Source of the DNA: Salegentibacter agarivorans
Lineage (GTDB): Bacteria > Bacteroidota > Bacteroidia > Flavobacteriales > Flavobacteriaceae
Length of the DNA stretch: 64,000 bases
Direction of reading: 5' to 3'
Assembly (NCBI RefSeq): GCF_900113135.1
Contig: NZ_FOOH01000022.1
Coordinates: forward strand, 1-64,000
Position numbers and translations under genes: made by a program. Every line of letters begins with the position of its first letter. Positions within the stretch are counted from its first letter, which is position 1. The notes under the pieces were generated by a model. The model saw only the letters and a program-made list of their open reading frames with translations, was not told where the DNA came from and made no database searches. Shown here in pieces: positions 13,061-18,860 of this stretch.

Positions 13061-13342
13061 ATGCCAACATCAATTATTACCACCGATGATCTTCGGGAAT
13101 TCAAAATGGAATTGCTCGATGATATTAAACAACTTCTTACCAGCCAGGATTCCGGAACTCTTAAAAGGTACCTGAAATCTTCGGAAGTTATGGACTTGCT
13201 ACAAATAAGTCCGGGAACACTCCAGAATCTACGGGTAAATGGCACTCTTCCCTATTCCAAGGTAGGTGGCATCATTTACTATGATGCGCAGGAAATTCAG
13301 AAGGTTATGGAAGAGAACCGGATACATCATTTAAACTTTTAA
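13061..13342 (+). CDS. Excisionase-like helix-turn-helix protein
   Basis: 93 aa. The C-terminal half (about residues 38-88) is an HTH_17/MerR-like winged helix: YLKSSEVMDLLQISPGTLQN, then LPYSKVGGIIYYDAQEIQ. Such proteins direct excision or regulate transfer genes in Bacteroidota integrative elements. The N-terminal ~35 residues form a charged helix (DLREFKMELLDDIKQLL). It lies 3 bp upstream of the Rep-like gene. No integrase is present nearby, so the partner recombinase would have to lie elsewhere. Confidence 0.85.
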   Translation: MPTSIITTDDLREFKMELLDDIKQLLTSQDSGTLKRYLKSSEVMDLLQISPGTLQNLRVNGTLPYSKVGGIIYYDAQEIQKVMEENRIHHLNF

Positions 13343-13345
13343 GAA

Positions 13346-14098
13346 ATGAACTATATCAAGCAATTAAATGCGGCCTTTGAGAAGTTCTACTTTGATGACC
13401 GGTTAAATCCAACCCACATTAGCTTATACATGGCTTTATTTCAGGAATGGAATAGCAGCAGGTTTGCCGATGAATTTTTTGTGAACCGCAGGGATCTGAT
13501 GAAGGTAGCTAAGATCGGTTCCAAATCTACCTACCACAGGTGTGTTACCGATCTTAATGCCTGGTCTTACCTTAGCTATTATCCCTCTAACAATCCTTAC
13601 AAAGGCAGTAAGATCAAGATGTTCATTCTCGGGACAGGTGATGAATCGCAACCGAACCAGTATGATCCCAAATTGGAACAACTGGCAGATCAGTACCATC
13701 CCATACGGGAACCTGTCATGAACCGTCACCGATCGGTCAGTGAACAGGTAATGGACTCGCAGCGTCCCGTGAGTGGACAAGCATTGGTATCTACTATAAA
13801 CAATACCAAACTAATAAAACATAATAAACAACCAAACAGCCTGGAGGTGGTTTTGAATTTTTTTAAGGATAAGGATCTTGATCCGGATTACGCAAAAACA
13901 TTCTTCGAATATTATCAGGATCGGGATTGGCTTACCAGCGATGGCCTGGAGGTCAGGGATTGGCGATCCCTTGCTTTGTACTGGGCTGAAAAAAAATCGC
14001 TGGCGAGACAAAAAAAGAAATTAAATCAAAAGGAGGGGTCCCAGTTTCGGGACAACTTGCGAACCACTAAAAATAAGGATTATGGACAACCCCTCTAA
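13346..14098 (+). CDS. Rep-like protein of a mobile element (winged-helix, DnaD/O-like layout)
   Basis: 250 aa. The N-terminal ~100 residues look like a winged-helix replication or plasmid-control domain (HISLYMALFQEWN, RRDLMKVAKIGSKSTYHRCVTDL). A variable linker follows, then a C-terminal domain (VLNFFKDKDLDPDYAKTFFEYYQDRDW...WRSLALYWAEKK) of the kind found in primosomal helicase-loading proteins. It overlaps the start of the DnaC-like gene by 17 bp, a classic replication initiator plus loader arrangement. A paralogue lies at 34352-35032, with the same ends (NK(D/N)YG(Q/E)PL). Exact function is inferred. Confidence 0.65.
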   Translation: MNYIKQLNAAFEKFYFDDRLNPTHISLYMALFQEWNSSRFADEFFVNRRDLMKVAKIGSKSTYHRCVTDLNAWSYLSYYPSNNPYKGSKIKMFILGTGDESQPNQYDPKLEQLADQYHPIREPVMNRHRSVSEQVMDSQRPVSGQALVSTINNTKLIKHNKQPNSLEVVLNFFKDKDLDPDYAKTFFEYYQDRDWLTSDGLEVRDWRSLALYWAEKKSLARQKKKLNQKEGSQFRDNLRTTKNKDYGQPL

Positions 14099-14744
14099 AA
14101 TAACCGAAGGTGGTGTGGAATATTCTCTGGGTAAGTTCGATGGGAAATGTGTACAATATGATTTTCCTAAGATTTTAGTGTATCTCAACGCCAAAGGAAA
14201 ACTCCTTTTTGGAAATAAATTTAAAATTTACAAGGAAGATAAAGCGGTCCTGCTAAAACTGTGTTCCTACTTTATCCGTGATAAGGAAAATTGTAAAAAG
14301 CACGGAATTGATATCGATAAGGGGATTTTACTATCAGGCCCTGTAGGATGCGGAAAAACTAGCTTAATGAAATTACTGCGGCATTTAGTACCTAACCAGC
14401 GACACTATGAAATGATACCCAGCCGGAACGTGACTTTTAGTTTTAATCATCTTGGATATAAAACCATCGAAGACTATGGTAGCACTAAATTCTTTTGTTT
14501 TGATGACCTGGGCGTTGAACCACCCGGCAGGTTTTATGGCAAGGATTTAAATGTTATGGGCGAGGTACTGCTATCGAGGTATGAACTTTATCTGGAAACC
14601 AATAAAAAGCTCAAAACACATGCCACCACAAATTTAAACGCTGAAGAACTGGAAGTACGTTACGGAAACCGGGTGCGGAGCAGGATGCGGGAATTGTTTA
14701 ATTTAATCGCGTTCAGTGAACGATCAATGGATAAAAGGAAGTGA
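14082..14744 (+). CDS. DnaC-like AAA+ ATPase (helicase-loader type)
   Basis: 220 aa. Walker A is GPVGCGKTS (about residues 87-95), Walker B FFCFDDLGVEP (about 141), and an arginine-rich RYGNRVRSRMRELF (about 190) near the C-terminus supplies the arginine finger or DNA contact. By family it should load a replicative helicase or assist the Rep-like protein upstream, with which it overlaps by 17 bp. Immediately after its stop the sequence passes into a truncated minus-strand gene, so the right border of this mobile module is close to 14745-14760. Confidence 0.8.
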   Translation: MDNPSKITEGGVEYSLGKFDGKCVQYDFPKILVYLNAKGKLLFGNKFKIYKEDKAVLLKLCSYFIRDKENCKKHGIDIDKGILLSGPVGCGKTSLMKLLRHLVPNQRHYEMIPSRNVTFSFNHLGYKTIEDYGSTKFFCFDDLGVEPPGRFYGKDLNVMGEVLLSRYELYLETNKKLKTHATTNLNAEELEVRYGNRVRSRMRELFNLIAFSERSMDKRK

Positions 14745-15730: not shown

Positions 15731-15958
15731 TTAAAGTGGTTTTTCTGGCCAAAAGTCCTTAGGAGAGCAATTGAAGATTTGTGCAATTTCGTTCAAGTGG
15801 TTTAGGTTATATTTTGCCCTTCTATTTTTTGATTCTACATGCGAAATGAAACTATCACTCAAGTTTAATTTTTGGGAAAGGGCTATTTGAGATAGGCCTT
15901 TCTCTTTGCGCATCTCTTTTACTTTTTCAATTATATAGATTTCAATTTTGCTTACCAC
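15731..15958 (-). CDS. XRE-family regulator
   Basis: 75 aa with a single Cro/C1-type HTH (residues about 12-66): VKEMRKEKGLSQIALSQKLNLS, then SFISHVESKNRR as the recognition helix region. The start appears to be GTG at 15958, since an in-frame stop lies two codons upstream. A perfect 10-bp inverted repeat lies 2 bp upstream (15961-15993), so autoregulation is likely. It is divergent from the sigma factor/dCas12f operon. Small size and arrangement resemble controller proteins of restriction or toxin operons. A decayed paralogue is at 6875-7000. Confidence 0.88.
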   Translation of the reverse strand: MVSKIEIYIIEKVKEMRKEKGLSQIALSQKLNLSDSFISHVESKNRRAKYNLNHLNEIAQIFNCSPKDFWPEKPL

Positions 15959-16154: not shown

Positions 16155-16937
16155 ATGTTGCAGCGTATTTTTGAATTATTACAACAAGGACATCCAGAGG
16201 CTTTGGAATTGATCTATGCCAGGTATAACCGAAGCCTCTTCTGGCTTGGCAAAAGAACAATTAAGGATGAATTTGTCATAGAAAACATCCTTCAGAATAC
16301 TTTCTTAAAACTATGGGAGAAAAAAGACCGGATAGAAGACCCGGAACATATTTACTTTTTCCTTCGTTATGTAATGAAAAGAGATTGTACCTATTATTAT
16401 TGCCGACCTCGGAAAAAGTTTCAACGGAACATAGAAAGGTTAGAATTTTATGAAGACTACCAGGAATATATGCATGGTTATGACCCGGAGGAAGAGGATA
16501 AGCATCTGTTGGAGCAGGAAGCGGACCAGAAAGCTTTCGACCAGATTCGAAATGTTCTCCCTTTGCTTAGCGGTAAAAGAAAGCTCCTGATTGAACTCTG
16601 TTTAAAATACGGTTTTCAGTATAAAGCCATCGCCGAAGCGATGGGAACCAGCATCACCAAAACCAGTATCGAAGTAAAATGCGCCATTGAAGATATTAAG
16701 AATATCATTAATAAAGGGAGGCCCCTTGAAGCTAAACCACAACCGATGATAGCGGTAAATATCCAGGGTACCATGACCCGGGAACAGGAAAAGGTGTTAC
16801 AGCTGCGTACAGAAAAGCAATATTCATTTGCTGCCATCGCTAAGGAACTGAACCTTTCTCAAAAGGAAGTACATCAGGAATTTATGGCTGCCTATAAATT
16901 ATTACAGCTCAAACACGAACAACAACAATCAGCTTAG
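16155..16937 (+). CDS. ECF-type sigma factor paired with a dead Cas12f, with an extra C-terminal HTH
   Basis: 260 aa, longer than usual for an ECF sigma factor (~180-200 aa; compare 184 aa at 30870). Region 2 spans about residues 14-75 (ARYNRSLFWLGKRTIKD, ILQNTFLKLWEKKDRI). Region 4 spans about 130-180 (LPLLSGKRKLLIELCLKYGFQ, KAIAEAMGTSITKTSIEVK). A second region-4-like HTH follows at about 207-252 (TREQEKVLQLRTEKQYSFAA, IAKELNLSQKEVHQEFMAAY). No anti-sigma gene is nearby. Its stop is 2 bp before the dCas12f start, so the two are cotranslated. Nuclease-dead Cas12f homologues paired with such sigma factors in Bacteroidota are known to direct RNA-guided transcription; assigning this pair to that class is inference from layout and domains. 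Confidence 0.85.
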   Translation: MLQRIFELLQQGHPEALELIYARYNRSLFWLGKRTIKDEFVIENILQNTFLKLWEKKDRIEDPEHIYFFLRYVMKRDCTYYYCRPRKKFQRNIERLEFYEDYQEYMHGYDPEEEDKHLLEQEADQKAFDQIRNVLPLLSGKRKLLIELCLKYGFQYKAIAEAMGTSITKTSIEVKCAIEDIKNIINKGRPLEAKPQPMIAVNIQGTMTREQEKVLQLRTEKQYSFAAIAKELNLSQKEVHQEFMAAYKLLQLKHEQQQSA

Positions 16938-16939
16938 TC

Positions 16940-18040
16940 ATGGGAAAAGATACGATAAAACTCACCCGGAAGATCCAGCTACAAGTGGATGCCCCTACCA
17001 AGGAAGAAAAAAAGGAGGTTTATGACACGCTGTACCGCTGGCAGAACCGTAGCTTTAAAGCAGCCAATCTCATTGTTTCACATCTGTACGTGCAGGAAAT
17101 GATCAAAGAATTCCTTTATTTATCGGAAGGAGTAAGATATAAGCTGGCAGATGATAAAAAAGCTGAAGACGGCATCTTGGATCGGCACCGGCTCAGTACT
17201 ACCTACCGGGTGGTATCCGATCGGTTTAAAGGGGAAATTCCCACCAACATTTTAAACAACCTGAACAATAATATCATCAATAACTTTCGTAACAATTGGC
17301 CAGAATATATTAGAGGAGAACGCTCCCTGGCAAATTTCAAAAGGAATATCGCTTTTCCTTTTGGACCGGTAGGTATTCATGGTTTATCTTATAAAGAAGA
17401 AAAAAAAGCATTTTGTTTTCGTTTGTTTTCCATTCCACTTAAAACATATTTAGGGAAGGATTATACTGATAAACGAAGCTTGCTGGAACAGGTAATAGCC
17501 GGAAAAATCAAGCTATGTACTTCTAAAATTCAACTGAAAAAACAAAAAATTTATTTGTTAGCGACCTTTGAATTTGAGAAAGAAAAGCATAGCCTGAAAC
17601 CGGAAGTAATTGCAGAAGCTTCTTTATCTCTTGAATACCCTATAACAGTGAAATCCGGAAAAGCAACACTTAGTATCGGCAATAGGGAGGAATTCCTATA
17701 TAGAAGGCTAGCCATACAGGCTGCTCAAAAAAGGGCACAAAGCGGGGCCACCTATTGCAGACCCGGAAAAGGCCGTAAACGCAAAACAAAAGCAGTGGAT
17801 AAATTCTACGAACTGGAAAAAAACTATGTAAGTAACCGCTTGCATGTATACAGCCGGAAGCTAATTGATTTTTGCATTAAACAACAGGCAGGGACACTCA
17901 TTTTGTTAAACCAGGAGGATAAAAAAGGAATCGCCAAAGAAGAAGACGGATTTCTTTTAAGGAATTGGAATTACTATGAACTGACGACCAAAATAAAATA
18001 CAAGGCCAAGAAGGCCGGTATTGAACTTATAGTAGGTTAA
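16940..18040 (+). CDS. Nuclease-dead, shortened Cas12f/TnpB-like RNA-guided protein
   Basis: 366 aa. The C-terminal third reads like a Cas12f/TnpB RuvC domain: NREEFLYRRLAIQAAQKRAQ (about 248-267), the RPGKGRKRK basic turn (274-282), SRKLIDFCIKQQAGTLILLN (305-324), and LRNWNYYELTTKIKYKAKKA (340-359) before GIELIVG and stop. Catalysis is lost. The RuvC-I strand reads EASLSLEYPI (226-235) where active enzymes have G(I/V)DLG. The protein stops before the zinc finger and RuvC-III Asp. The RuvC-II glutamate is not clearly kept (residues 322-327 LLNQED). It should still bind a guide RNA and DNA, here to recruit the sigma factor encoded 2 bp upstream. A structured scaffold begins 10 bp after its stop. 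Confidence 0.88.
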   Translation: MGKDTIKLTRKIQLQVDAPTKEEKKEVYDTLYRWQNRSFKAANLIVSHLYVQEMIKEFLYLSEGVRYKLADDKKAEDGILDRHRLSTTYRVVSDRFKGEIPTNILNNLNNNIINNFRNNWPEYIRGERSLANFKRNIAFPFGPVGIHGLSYKEEKKAFCFRLFSIPLKTYLGKDYTDKRSLLEQVIAGKIKLCTSKIQLKKQKIYLLATFEFEKEKHSLKPEVIAEASLSLEYPITVKSGKATLSIGNREEFLYRRLAIQAAQKRAQSGATYCRPGKGRKRKTKAVDKFYELEKNYVSNRLHVYSRKLIDFCIKQQAGTLILLNQEDKKGIAKEEDGFLLRNWNYYELTTKIKYKAKKAGIELIVG

Positions 18041-18050
18041 ATCGAATTAG

Positions 18051-18139
18051 GAGGGTGCTTGTACACCCATAAGGTGAGGTATTTAATGACACTCACTAAA
18101 TGCACACAGCATATACAACCTTCCCTGAAAGATTAAAAG
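18051..18139 (+). ncRNA. Guide RNA unit 1 (scaffold 18051-18119 plus guide)
   Basis: The 69-nt scaffold has three predicted stems: GGGTG/CACCC, GTGAG/CTCAC and ATGC/GCAT, ending in ATATACAAC. The variable stretch from 18120 (CTTCCCTGAAAGATT...) is the guide in the position used by Cas12f and TnpB RNAs (3' of the scaffold). It lies 10 bp after the dCas12f stop and is probably processed from the operon transcript or made from its own promoter. Guide length is assumed (~20 nt). Confidence 0.75.
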
Positions 18140-18230
18140 GAACTGGAATTATTATGAACTGGTGACCAAAAAATAAAATACAAGGCCGGTAAAGCCGGTA
18201 TTGAATTTATAGTAGATTAAATTCAATGAT

Positions 18231-18319
18231 GAGGGTGCTTGTACACCCACAAGGTGAGGTCCCTAATAGCACTTACTAAATGCACGCAGCATATACAACC
18301 CTCCCCTAAAGATTAAAGG
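18231..18319 (+). ncRNA. Guide RNA unit 2 (scaffold 18231-18299 plus guide)
   Basis: Same three stems as unit 1; stem 2 reads GTGAG/CTTAC, still pairable with a G-U. The guide from 18300 begins CCTCCCCTAAAGATT, three differences from unit 1. Confidence 0.72.
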
Positions 18320-18406
18320 AACTGCAATTATTATGAACTGATGACCAAAATCGAAGACAAGGCCGGTAAAGATAGTATTGAACTTATACTGGATTAATTT
18401 AATTAT

Positions 18407-18495
18407 GAGGGTGCTTGTACACCCGCAAGGTGAGGTCCCTAATAGCACTCACTAAATGCACGCAGCATATACAACCTCCCCCTAAAGATTAAAGG
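18407..18495 (+). ncRNA. Guide RNA unit 3 (scaffold 18407-18475 plus guide)
   Basis: Stems GGGTG/CACCC, GTGAG/CTCAC, ATGC/GCAT. The guide from 18476 begins CTCCCCCTAAAGATT, two differences from unit 2, both in the first three bases. Confidence 0.72.
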
Positions 18496-18583
18496 AACTG
18501 CAATTATTATGAACTGATGACCAAAATAAAATATAAGTCCGAGAAAGCCGGTATTGAACTTATGGTAGATTAAATTCAATGAT

Positions 18584-18672
18584 GAGGGTGCTTGTATACC
18601 CATAAGGTGAGGTATTTAATAACACTCACTAAATGCGTTTAGCATATACAACTTAATTCGATTAGCCTAGCT
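18584..18672 (+). ncRNA. Guide RNA unit 4 (scaffold 18584-18652 plus guide)
   Basis: Stems GGGTG/TACCC (G-U closing), GTGAG/CTCAC, ATGC/GCAT with a changed loop (GTTTA). The guide from 18653 (TTAATTCGATTAGCCTAGCT) is unrelated to units 1-3, so this unit should address a different target. Confidence 0.72.
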
Positions 18673-18769
18673 TGAAAGCCGAAAAGAACTGGAATTATCG
18701 TGAGAAGATGACTAAAATAAAATACAAGGCCGGTAAAGCCGGTATTGGACTTATAGTGGATTAAATTTT

Positions 18770-18857
18770 GAGGGTTCCTGTATACCGCTAAGATGGAGTT
18801 GAAATCATACTCATTATATGCTCTTGGCATACACAATATTGAAGGAGCAGGCACTGA
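18770..18857 (+). ncRNA. Guide RNA unit 5, diverged (scaffold 18770-18837 plus guide)
   Basis: Most diverged copy: stem 1 is weakened (GGGTTCCTGTATACCGC), stem 2 reads ATGGAG/CTCAT with a bulge, stem 3 ATGC/GCAT is kept, and the 3' end is ATACACAAT. The stretch from 18838 (ATTGAAGGAGCAGGCACTGA) would be the guide. It may be non-functional. Confidence 0.55.
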
Positions 18858-18860
18858 TTC

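What the first reader, a model, noticed from the sequence alone, without database searches (positions are those of the whole stretch)
16155..18860. Sigma factor + nuclease-dead Cas12f + guide-RNA array: probable RNA-guided transcription system
A 260-aa ECF-type sigma factor is followed after 2 bp by a Cas12f/TnpB-like protein that has lost its RuvC catalytic residues. A structured scaffold with guide-like 3' extensions starts 10 bp after that. Seen in the sequence: domain order, spacing, repeated scaffold. Established: Cas12f and TnpB use a scaffold plus a 3' guide, and dead Cas12f-sigma pairs that direct transcription have been reported in Bacteroidota. Inference: this locus turns on genes chosen by its guides. 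The multi-guide array would let one sigma factor reach several promoters.
Basis: partly seen in the sequence, partly recalled or inferred. Interest (0 to 1): 0.95.

Follow-up and report, generated by a model that had tools for sequence, protein, structure and literature searches.

The report
RNA-guided transcription locus with guide array
The window holds a sigma factor paired with a nuclease-dead Cas12f and a row of five guide-RNA scaffolds, a member of a recently described family that uses guide RNAs to switch on bacterial genes, but which genes these particular guides switch on is still open.

Summary
A 260-aa ECF sigma factor (16155-16937) is followed after 2 bp by a 366-aa Cas12f-like protein (16940-18040). 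Its RuvC Asp is replaced by Ser and it ends before RuvC-III. Five scaffold copies follow (18052-18837). Both proteins match chains of one solved system (dCas12f in 9n9c/9n9m/9n9o/9n9q, RpoE in 9n9q), so the locus is a member of the known dCas12f-sigma kind.

Each array unit is a tandem copy of the dCas12f gene tail, scaffold and a short guide. Guides 1-3 are near-copies, guide 4 differs, scaffold 5 is decayed. Arrays of 2-6 scaffolds occur in 12 of 50 related loci.

In relatives, the commonest guide class matches G-flanked DNA, in the same orientation, upstream of SusC-like genes in 8 of 12 genomes searched, and upstream of sigma-dcas12f operons. That target lies in a bistable, terminator-like leader without an Rfam match. 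In 12 SusC operons with such leaders whose third gene was scanned, it is a peptidase (11) or amidohydrolase (1).

The window's own guides match their own genome only weakly: the best is guide 2, 11 of 14 bases, 80 nt upstream of a SusC gene. 'Several promoters' is not shown for this array.

The parts
16155..16937 (+). ECF-type sigma factor, 260 aa (regions 2 and 4 by TIGR02985/TIGR02937 over residues 15-183; a second region-4-like match at residues 206-249)
   Evidence: RpoE chain 9n9q_C E 2e-87, profile of 16 sequences E 1.5e-127; dN/dS 0.11-0.17 against six loci
16940..18040 (+). nuclease-dead Cas12f homologue, 366 aa, RuvC Asp replaced by Ser228, truncated before RuvC-III
   Evidence: 9n9c_A E 6e-172; AF2 model's top Foldseek hits 9n9m/9n9c at 70/67% identity; dN/dS 0.09-0.19 against six loci
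18052..18119 (+). guide-RNA scaffold 1
   Evidence: 92.9 bits with model R1; scaffold alignment and fold
18120..18136 (+). guide 1 (CTTCCCTGAAAGATTAA); its 3' part merges into the duplicated gene tail
   Evidence: sequence after the conserved ACAAC
18137..18220 (+). duplicated dCas12f gene-tail fragment, unit 2 (coordinates approximate)
   Evidence: repeats; frame
18232..18299 (+). guide-RNA scaffold 2
   Evidence: 84.5 bits
18300..18316 (+). guide 2 (CCTCCCCTAAAGATTAA)
18317..18398 (+). duplicated gene-tail fragment, unit 3 (approximate)
18408..18475 (+). guide-RNA scaffold 3
   Evidence: 90.7 bits
18476..18492 (+). guide 3 (CTCCCCCTAAAGATTAA)
18493..18574 (+). duplicated gene-tail fragment, unit 4 (approximate)
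18585..18652 (+). guide-RNA scaffold 4
   Evidence: 90.3 bits
18653..18672 (+). guide 4 (TTAATTCGATTAGCCTAGCT); related guides in L037 and L045
18684..18765 (+). duplicated gene-tail fragment, unit 5 (approximate)
18771..18837 (+). guide-RNA scaffold 5, decayed
   Evidence: 37.7 bits, E 5e-6
18838..18857 (+). putative guide 5 (ATTGAAGGAGCAGGCACTGA), function doubtful
   Evidence: no genome search made with it (scored only against two leaders)
15731..15958 (-). divergent small XRE-type HTH gene upstream of the sigma gene
   Evidence: HTH_3 E 3e-9; a divergent ORF of at least 50 aa lies within 700 nt upstream of sigma in 41 of 48 related loci (not all HTH)

Best explanation
A dCas12f-sigma RNA-guided transcription module. 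Shown by sequence: two adjacent genes under purifying selection, with the hallmarks of a sigma factor and a dead Cas12f; a conserved scaffold with short 3' guides; and in relatives guide-class matches (5'-G, one orientation) upstream of SusC-like genes and of sigma-dcas12f operons. Inferred: transcription runs through the sigma gene, dcas12f and the array; dCas12f binds a scaffold-guide RNA, opens DNA at a short G-flanked match, and the sigma factor brings RNA polymerase, which starts downstream of the R-loop. In the related loci the target strand is one arm of a terminator-like stem in a bistable leader, so a start inside that stem would bypass the terminator. The window array arose by repeated duplication of gene tail + scaffold + guide. 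It most likely carries redundant, drifting guides for SusC leaders rather than several distinct promoters.
For: Solved homologues: dCas12f chain of 9n9c/9n9m/9n9o/9n9q E 6e-172 and RpoE of 9n9q E 2e-87; titles of 9n9c and 9n9m 'dCas12f-gRNA complex' and 'dCas12f-gRNA-DNA complex (partial R-Loop)', released 2025-12-24. 50 homologous loci in flavobacteria; model R1 finds a scaffold in 50 of 50 (37 of its 43 rows come from these loci). Sigma stop to dcas12f start 1-2 bp in 46 of 48 loci with a sigma ORF (L042 11, L068 72). Class A guide pattern GCGTGGGCTCTCTTAT: 38 places at up to 2 mismatches in 12 genomes against 11 for the reversed control. Of the 30 places held as loci, 13 are guide RNAs, 15 leader elements, 2 look like chance. 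Of the 15, 10 (8 genomes) lie upstream of a SusC-like ORF in the same orientation and 5 upstream of a sigma gene. The base before the target is G in 29 of 30 aligned elements. Own genome: the orphan guide on C31 matches the leader of the sister sigma operon on C50 at 15 of 16; guide 2 of the C50 array matches 14 contiguous bases 84 nt upstream of susC on C31. dN/dS 0.11-0.17 (sigma) and 0.09-0.19 (dCas12f) against six loci.
Against: No transcript or binding data. Window guides 1-3 against the two own-genome SusC leaders: guide 2 at C31 11/14 with 14 of 200 shuffles as good; guide 2 at C34, and guides 1 and 3 at both, no better than 38-66 of 200 shuffles. The similarity of these guides to 'CCTTCCCCTAAGATTGG' needs a one-base gap. 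In the same test some antisense-strand controls of related genomes score as well (G006:C7 2 of 200), as expected from the hairpin there. Guide 4: 18 places at 2 mismatches besides itself against 10 in the control, none before a SusC-like ORF by eye. The window has no leader element upstream of its own sigma gene. The class A search used one common pattern, not each genome's own guide; within loci, guide and sigma-leader often differ at 1-3 of 16 bases; in L055, L056 and L082 and in Leeuwenhoekiella L038, L040-L042 the adjacent guide does not match the leader. Chryseobacterium-type guides start one base earlier (GGCGTGGGC), so the base before the leader match is then A or C in L075, L076, not G. 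The 14-base match of the C50 guide has A before it.
Confidence: 0.85

Rival explanations
1. The protein pair works, but the window array is a decaying tandem duplication: its guides no longer match anything and the proteins use guides supplied in trans (C50 array, C31 orphan) or are being lost.
For: Guides 1-3 near-identical, scaffold 5 decayed; own-genome matches weak; weak scaffolds also on C43, C49 and C31.
Against: Four scaffolds score 84-93 bits, in the range of single-guide loci; the same guide class recurs in seven related loci of three genera, L037-L042 and L045; both genes under purifying selection.
Confidence: 0.35
2. The module represses instead of activating: dead Cas12f roadblocks transcription, as TldR does, and the sigma factor is incidental.
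For: TldR is an established dead-TnpB repressor (PMC13418256, passages seen); targets lie inside leaders with a terminator-like stem.
Against: Sigma gene abuts dcas12f by 1-2 bp in 46 of 48 loci, and a solved entry with the homologous dCas12f also holds the sigma chain.
Confidence: 0.07
3. An ordinary TnpB/Cas12f nuclease gene of a transposon or CRISPR locus next to an unrelated sigma gene.
For: Matches to TnpB and Cas12f families below their cut-offs.
Against: RuvC Asp absent in 48 of 48 proteins aligned and RuvC-III missing; sigma-dcas12f adjacency conserved; in 72,556 plasmid and 50,697 phage records only distant matches, at most 28.3% identity.
Confidence: 0.02

Closest known systems
dCas12f-sigma(E) RNA-guided transcription (PDB 9n9c, 9n9m, 9n9o, 9n9q)
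   Same: Both proteins match along nearly their whole length (dCas12f 67-70% identity); truncated dead RuvC; scaffold RNA directly after the gene here and in 50 of 50 relatives. By recall also a 5'-G target motif and SusCD targets.
   Different: A five-unit array of gene tail + scaffold + guide, where 38 of 50 related loci have one scaffold next to the gene. Whether the publications describe arrays could not be checked.
TldR (TnpB-like nuclease-dead repressor)
   Same: Nuclease-dead TnpB-type protein with a guide RNA acting on transcription (PMC13418256, passages seen).
   Different: TldR represses host flagellin from prophages (passages seen); no sigma partner (recall).
Active miniature Cas12f (Al3Cas12f 9nzr, CnCas12f1 8hr5, AsCas12f 7wju)
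   Same: Fold; scaffold-plus-3'-guide principle (recall).
   Different: RuvC Asp present (9nzr) and longer chains; nuclease activity by recall; 17-28% identity.

Membership tests
dCas12f-sigma(E) RNA-guided transcription | Cas12f homologue with inactivated RuvC | tested here: met
   Asp replaced by Ser, RuvC-III absent
dCas12f-sigma(E) RNA-guided transcription | adjacent ECF sigma gene homologous to the RpoE chain of 9n9q | tested here: met
   2-bp gap; E 2e-87
dCas12f-sigma(E) RNA-guided transcription | conserved guide-RNA scaffold directly downstream of dcas12f | tested here: met
   five copies, 37.7-92.9 bits; scaffold in 50 of 50 related loci
dCas12f-sigma(E) RNA-guided transcription | guide matching a G-flanked site upstream of a gene in the same genome (family level) | tested here: met
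   class A pattern, up to 2 mismatches: upstream of SusC-like ORFs in 8 of 12 genomes; G in 29 of 30 aligned elements
dCas12f-sigma(E) RNA-guided transcription | the same for the window's own guides | tested here: inconclusive
   guide 2 11/14 at a susC leader, G-flanked, 14 of 200 shuffles as good; guides 1, 3, 4 not better than chance; guide 5 not searched in the genome
dCas12f-sigma(E) RNA-guided transcription | guide-dependent recruitment of RNA polymerase and new transcript starts | not testable with these tools
   needs experiment
TldR | repression without sigma partner, flagellin or phage context | tested here: not met
   sigma partner conserved; targets in relatives precede SusC-like genes; no close phage relative. 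Repression itself not testable here.
active Cas12f/TnpB nuclease | complete RuvC catalytic triad | tested here: not met

The most novel reading that the evidence does not exclude
RNA-guided transcription here is wired into an attenuator. The dCas12f target strand is one arm of a terminator-like stem in a bistable leader placed before susC-susD-peptidase operons and before the sigma-dcas12f operon itself. A start placed about 45 nt downstream of the target would leave that arm out of the transcript, bypass the terminator, and give positive feedback. Guide arrays spread by duplicating the gene tail with its scaffold, after which guides drift to follow leader variants.
Probability: 0.35. Interest if true: 0.85.

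Novelty: new member of a known kind. Interest (0 to 1): 0.6.

Why it matters
It places the system in a further strain with two full loci, one orphan guide and several decayed ones, so guide birth and decay can be followed. It ties the commonest guide class of relatives to SusC operons that also encode peptidases. It also shows that targets sit inside a conserved two-state leader for which Rfam gave no match in the loci searched. Together these make the questions 'what does RNA-guided transcription control, and why start there' directly testable.

Tried and rejected
Rfam for the leader elements: no match at gathering threshold in window, L014, L016, L050 (only tRNAs in window and L050), nor at E up to 1 in ten loci. 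A cobalamin-riboswitch-like look of the susC leader on C31 was my own impression and one search does not support it. Own-genome searches with guides 1-3: 21 places (three of them the array) against 15 in the control; 8 in G000 (three the array) against 3; of the 17 other places held as loci, one (L031) lies 145 nt before a SusD-like ORF by eye, with T before it, taken as chance; GCYYCCCYKAAAG gave one place, inside an ORF. Guide 4. The seed pattern GCCTTCCCYDAA in 8 genomes gave 39 places against 29 in the control; of the 30 held as loci, 9 are outside ORFs by my test and 4 of these lie 53-81 nt before the ORF start of a SusC-like gene (L204, L208, L213, L221). Plasmids and phages: only distant matches. 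Literature: ten searches (listings only) did not find the dCas12f-sigma publications in the held library; passages of PMC13418256, PMC12803034 and PMC12908284 were seen. What I say of the dCas12f-sigma papers (5'-G motif, SusCD targets, a fixed start distance of about 46 bp) is recall. No statement is made that arrays or the leader are unpublished.
Full report
What is in the window. Family scans call the first an ECF sigma factor and the second a distant TnpB/Cas12f. The closest solved proteins are the dCas12f chain of 9n9c, 9n9m, 9n9o and 9n9q (E 6e-172, whole length) and the RpoE chain of 9n9q (E 2e-87, residues 1-257). An AlphaFold2 model from 27 aligned sequences (mean pLDDT 77.5, pTM 0.57) has 9n9m and 9n9c as its best Foldseek matches, at 70 and 67% identity, with the titles 'dCas12f-gRNA-DNA complex (partial R-Loop)' and 'dCas12f-gRNA complex'. 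The identification rests on sequence, with fold as support.

Why it is dead, and why it is kept. Aligned to active Cas12f, the RuvC-I Asp faces Ser228; 48 of 48 proteins aligned lack Asp there (45 Ser, 2 Thr, 1 Cys). 48 of 50 proteins translated are 364-366 aa long and end before RuvC-III; L082 and L084 are interrupted, L086 was not included. The second acidic residue is less clear: the modelled strand ends at residue 323 and a well-kept Glu326 follows. dN/dS of window against C50, L037, L039, L045, L047 and L044 is 0.11-0.17 for sigma and 0.09-0.19 for dCas12f; against L050 synonymous sites are saturated. Both proteins are under purifying selection.

The array. Model R1, built from 43 scaffolds, finds five copies in the window, four strong and one decayed (37.7 bits). 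The spacing is 176-186 nt. Each unit repeats about 90 nt of the end of the dCas12f gene, stop codon included, then the scaffold, then a short guide. Guides 1-3 are near-copies. Among 50 related loci, 12 have two to six adjacent scaffolds: L037 3, L039 3, L044 3, L045 3, L046 2, L047 2, L061 2, L067 2, L070 4, L072 4, L074 6, L081 3 (some loci, such as L043, end soon after the gene, so this is a lower bound). In the Leeuwenhoekiella arrays L070, L072 and L074 the guides are diversified variants of one theme. The own genome has 15 R1 matches at E up to 1, two of them seen twice because contigs C49 and C50 carry the same sequence at their ends: the window array, the C50/C49 array, an orphan on C31, and weak copies on C24, C31, C43 and C49.

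Targets in relatives. The commonest guide (class A, GCGTGGGCTCTCTTAT) was searched as one pattern in 12 genomes at up to 2 mismatches: 38 places against 11 for the reversed pattern (L065 was asked for but not held). Of the 30 places held as loci, 13 are guide RNAs, 15 are copies of one structured leader, and 2 look like chance; the other 8 places were not fetched. Of the 15 leaders, 10 in 8 genomes lie upstream of a SusC-like ORF in the same orientation (by translation; in L127, L132, L134 and L141 only a short or broken ORF is visible) and 5 upstream of a sigma gene. A profile of the leader finds it upstream of the sigma gene on the same strand in 30 of 52 sequences (window, L014, 50 loci), 28 full and 2 partial (L058, L066), 60-1360 nt before the sigma start; not in the window.

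What the SusC operons hold. I read the downstream genes of 14 SusC operons with such leaders: 2 in the own genome and 12 elsewhere. Six of the 12 came from the class A pattern (L265-L270), two from a leader search in Leeuwenhoekiella (L273, L274), four from the second-motif or seed searches (L271, L272, L275, L276). The last six, and the two of the own genome, have leaders of the same kind, not proven guide matches. In the own genome (C31, C34) the order is susC, susD, M16 peptidase (Pfam). Elsewhere susC and susD were judged by length and position. The third gene was scanned in 10 of the 12: M16 in 5, DUF4953 Met-zincin in 3, amidohydrolase with beta propeller in 1, prolyl oligopeptidase in 1. 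L272 shows an HxxEH motif and L266 has no complete susC; neither was scanned.

The leader. In 30 aligned copies two mutually exclusive structures are supported. A nested set of helices with the hairpin GCTCACG/CGTGGGC: 92.5% of cells paired; percentage paired, double-changed cells and covariation score above all 500 shuffles and all slid versions; 7 of 500 shuffles reach the number of double-changed pairs and 79 of 500 the number of pair types; one of its six helices is poorly paired in this alignment (48.7%). A terminator-like stem in which the guide-matching strand pairs with ..CCACGCC before a T-run: 96.7% paired and covariation score above all 500 shuffles, though 44 of 500 shuffles and one slid version reach its number of double-changed pairs. 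The structures were drawn from these sequences, so the slid controls lean in their favour. The base before the target is G in 29 of 30, and the first target base lies 44-47 nt before the 3' arm in 30 of 30. If transcription starts at the distance I recall for this family (about 46 bp; recall, not from a call), the transcript would begin at the foot of the 3' arm and miss the 5' arm, so no terminator could form. This is inference. Rfam has no match for it.

Targets in the window's own genome. Two susC leaders (C31:114831-115531, C34:172425-173187) and the leader before the sister sigma gene on C50 were found. The C31 orphan guide matches the C50 leader at 15 of 16 bases. Guide 2 of the C50 array matches 14 contiguous bases 84 nt upstream of the C31 susC start, with A rather than G before it. 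The window's guides 1-3 resemble the neighbouring site G|CCTTCCCCTAAGATTGG (80 nt upstream of susC), but ungapped matches are weak: guide 2 at C31 11/14 (14 of 200 shuffles as good), the other five comparisons 38-66 of 200. The same guide class in G005 is better (11 contiguous bases, G before; 9 and 5 of 200), in G006 mixed (1-177 of 200), and in G007 not better than shuffles. Guide 4 has no convincing target; guide 5 was scored only against the two leaders, without a good match.

Reading. The family assignment is strong and the wiring in relatives is strong by sequence. The claim that this array lets one sigma factor reach several promoters is not supported for the window; redundancy and drift fit better. 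Activation itself, transcript starts and array processing are untested.

Noticed in passing
L014 (own genome contig C50), leader 2448-2640, - strand, sigma start at 2321: Second complete sigma-dcas12f locus with the structured leader upstream; dCas12f 80% identical to the window's; its array runs to the contig end and continues on C49.
   Followed up: yes
L016 9767-9850 (own genome C31:141766-141849): Orphan guide RNA behind a 62-residue fragment of the dCas12f gene end; its guide is of the class that matches sigma and SusC leaders.
   Followed up: partly
L262 1977-2045 (C43) and L015 16773-16836 (C49): Weak, decayed scaffolds with guide-like ends (GGCGTGGAGTCTAATA; AGCGGGGGCTACTTATT); the C43 one directly follows, and the C49 one lies about 1.4 kb from, similar DNA that looks like the end of a Fic-type gene (label by eye, no scan).
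   Followed up: no
window 15731-15958 and the upstream side of SusC leaders (L119, L125, L133, L137, L149 and others): A divergent ORF of at least 50 aa lies within 700 nt upstream of sigma in 41 of 48 loci, and HTH-looking ORFs lie upstream of SusC leaders. HTH was confirmed by Pfam in three cases only: window, L149 and L125. Leader and regulator may form one cassette.
   Followed up: partly
L149 1480-1640 and L044 8980-9130: A second conserved leader motif (AATTAGCC...GCCTTCCCC...GGGGAAGGC) about 80-110 nt before susC, also before sigma in Zunongwangia (L044, L067, L148); guides of the AAAGCCTTCCC and CCTTCCC classes resemble it.
   Followed up: partly
L054 20021-20088 (- strand) and L062 18445-18912: Extra guide RNAs 7-9 kb from the dcas12f gene on the same contig: another guide class in L054, two copies with the same guide in L062.
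   Followed up: no
window 13061-14744: An HTH_17 (excisionase-like) protein and a P-loop ATPase that looks DnaC-like by eye (Pfam only weak AAA) just upstream, suggesting a small integrated element beside the locus.
   Followed up: no
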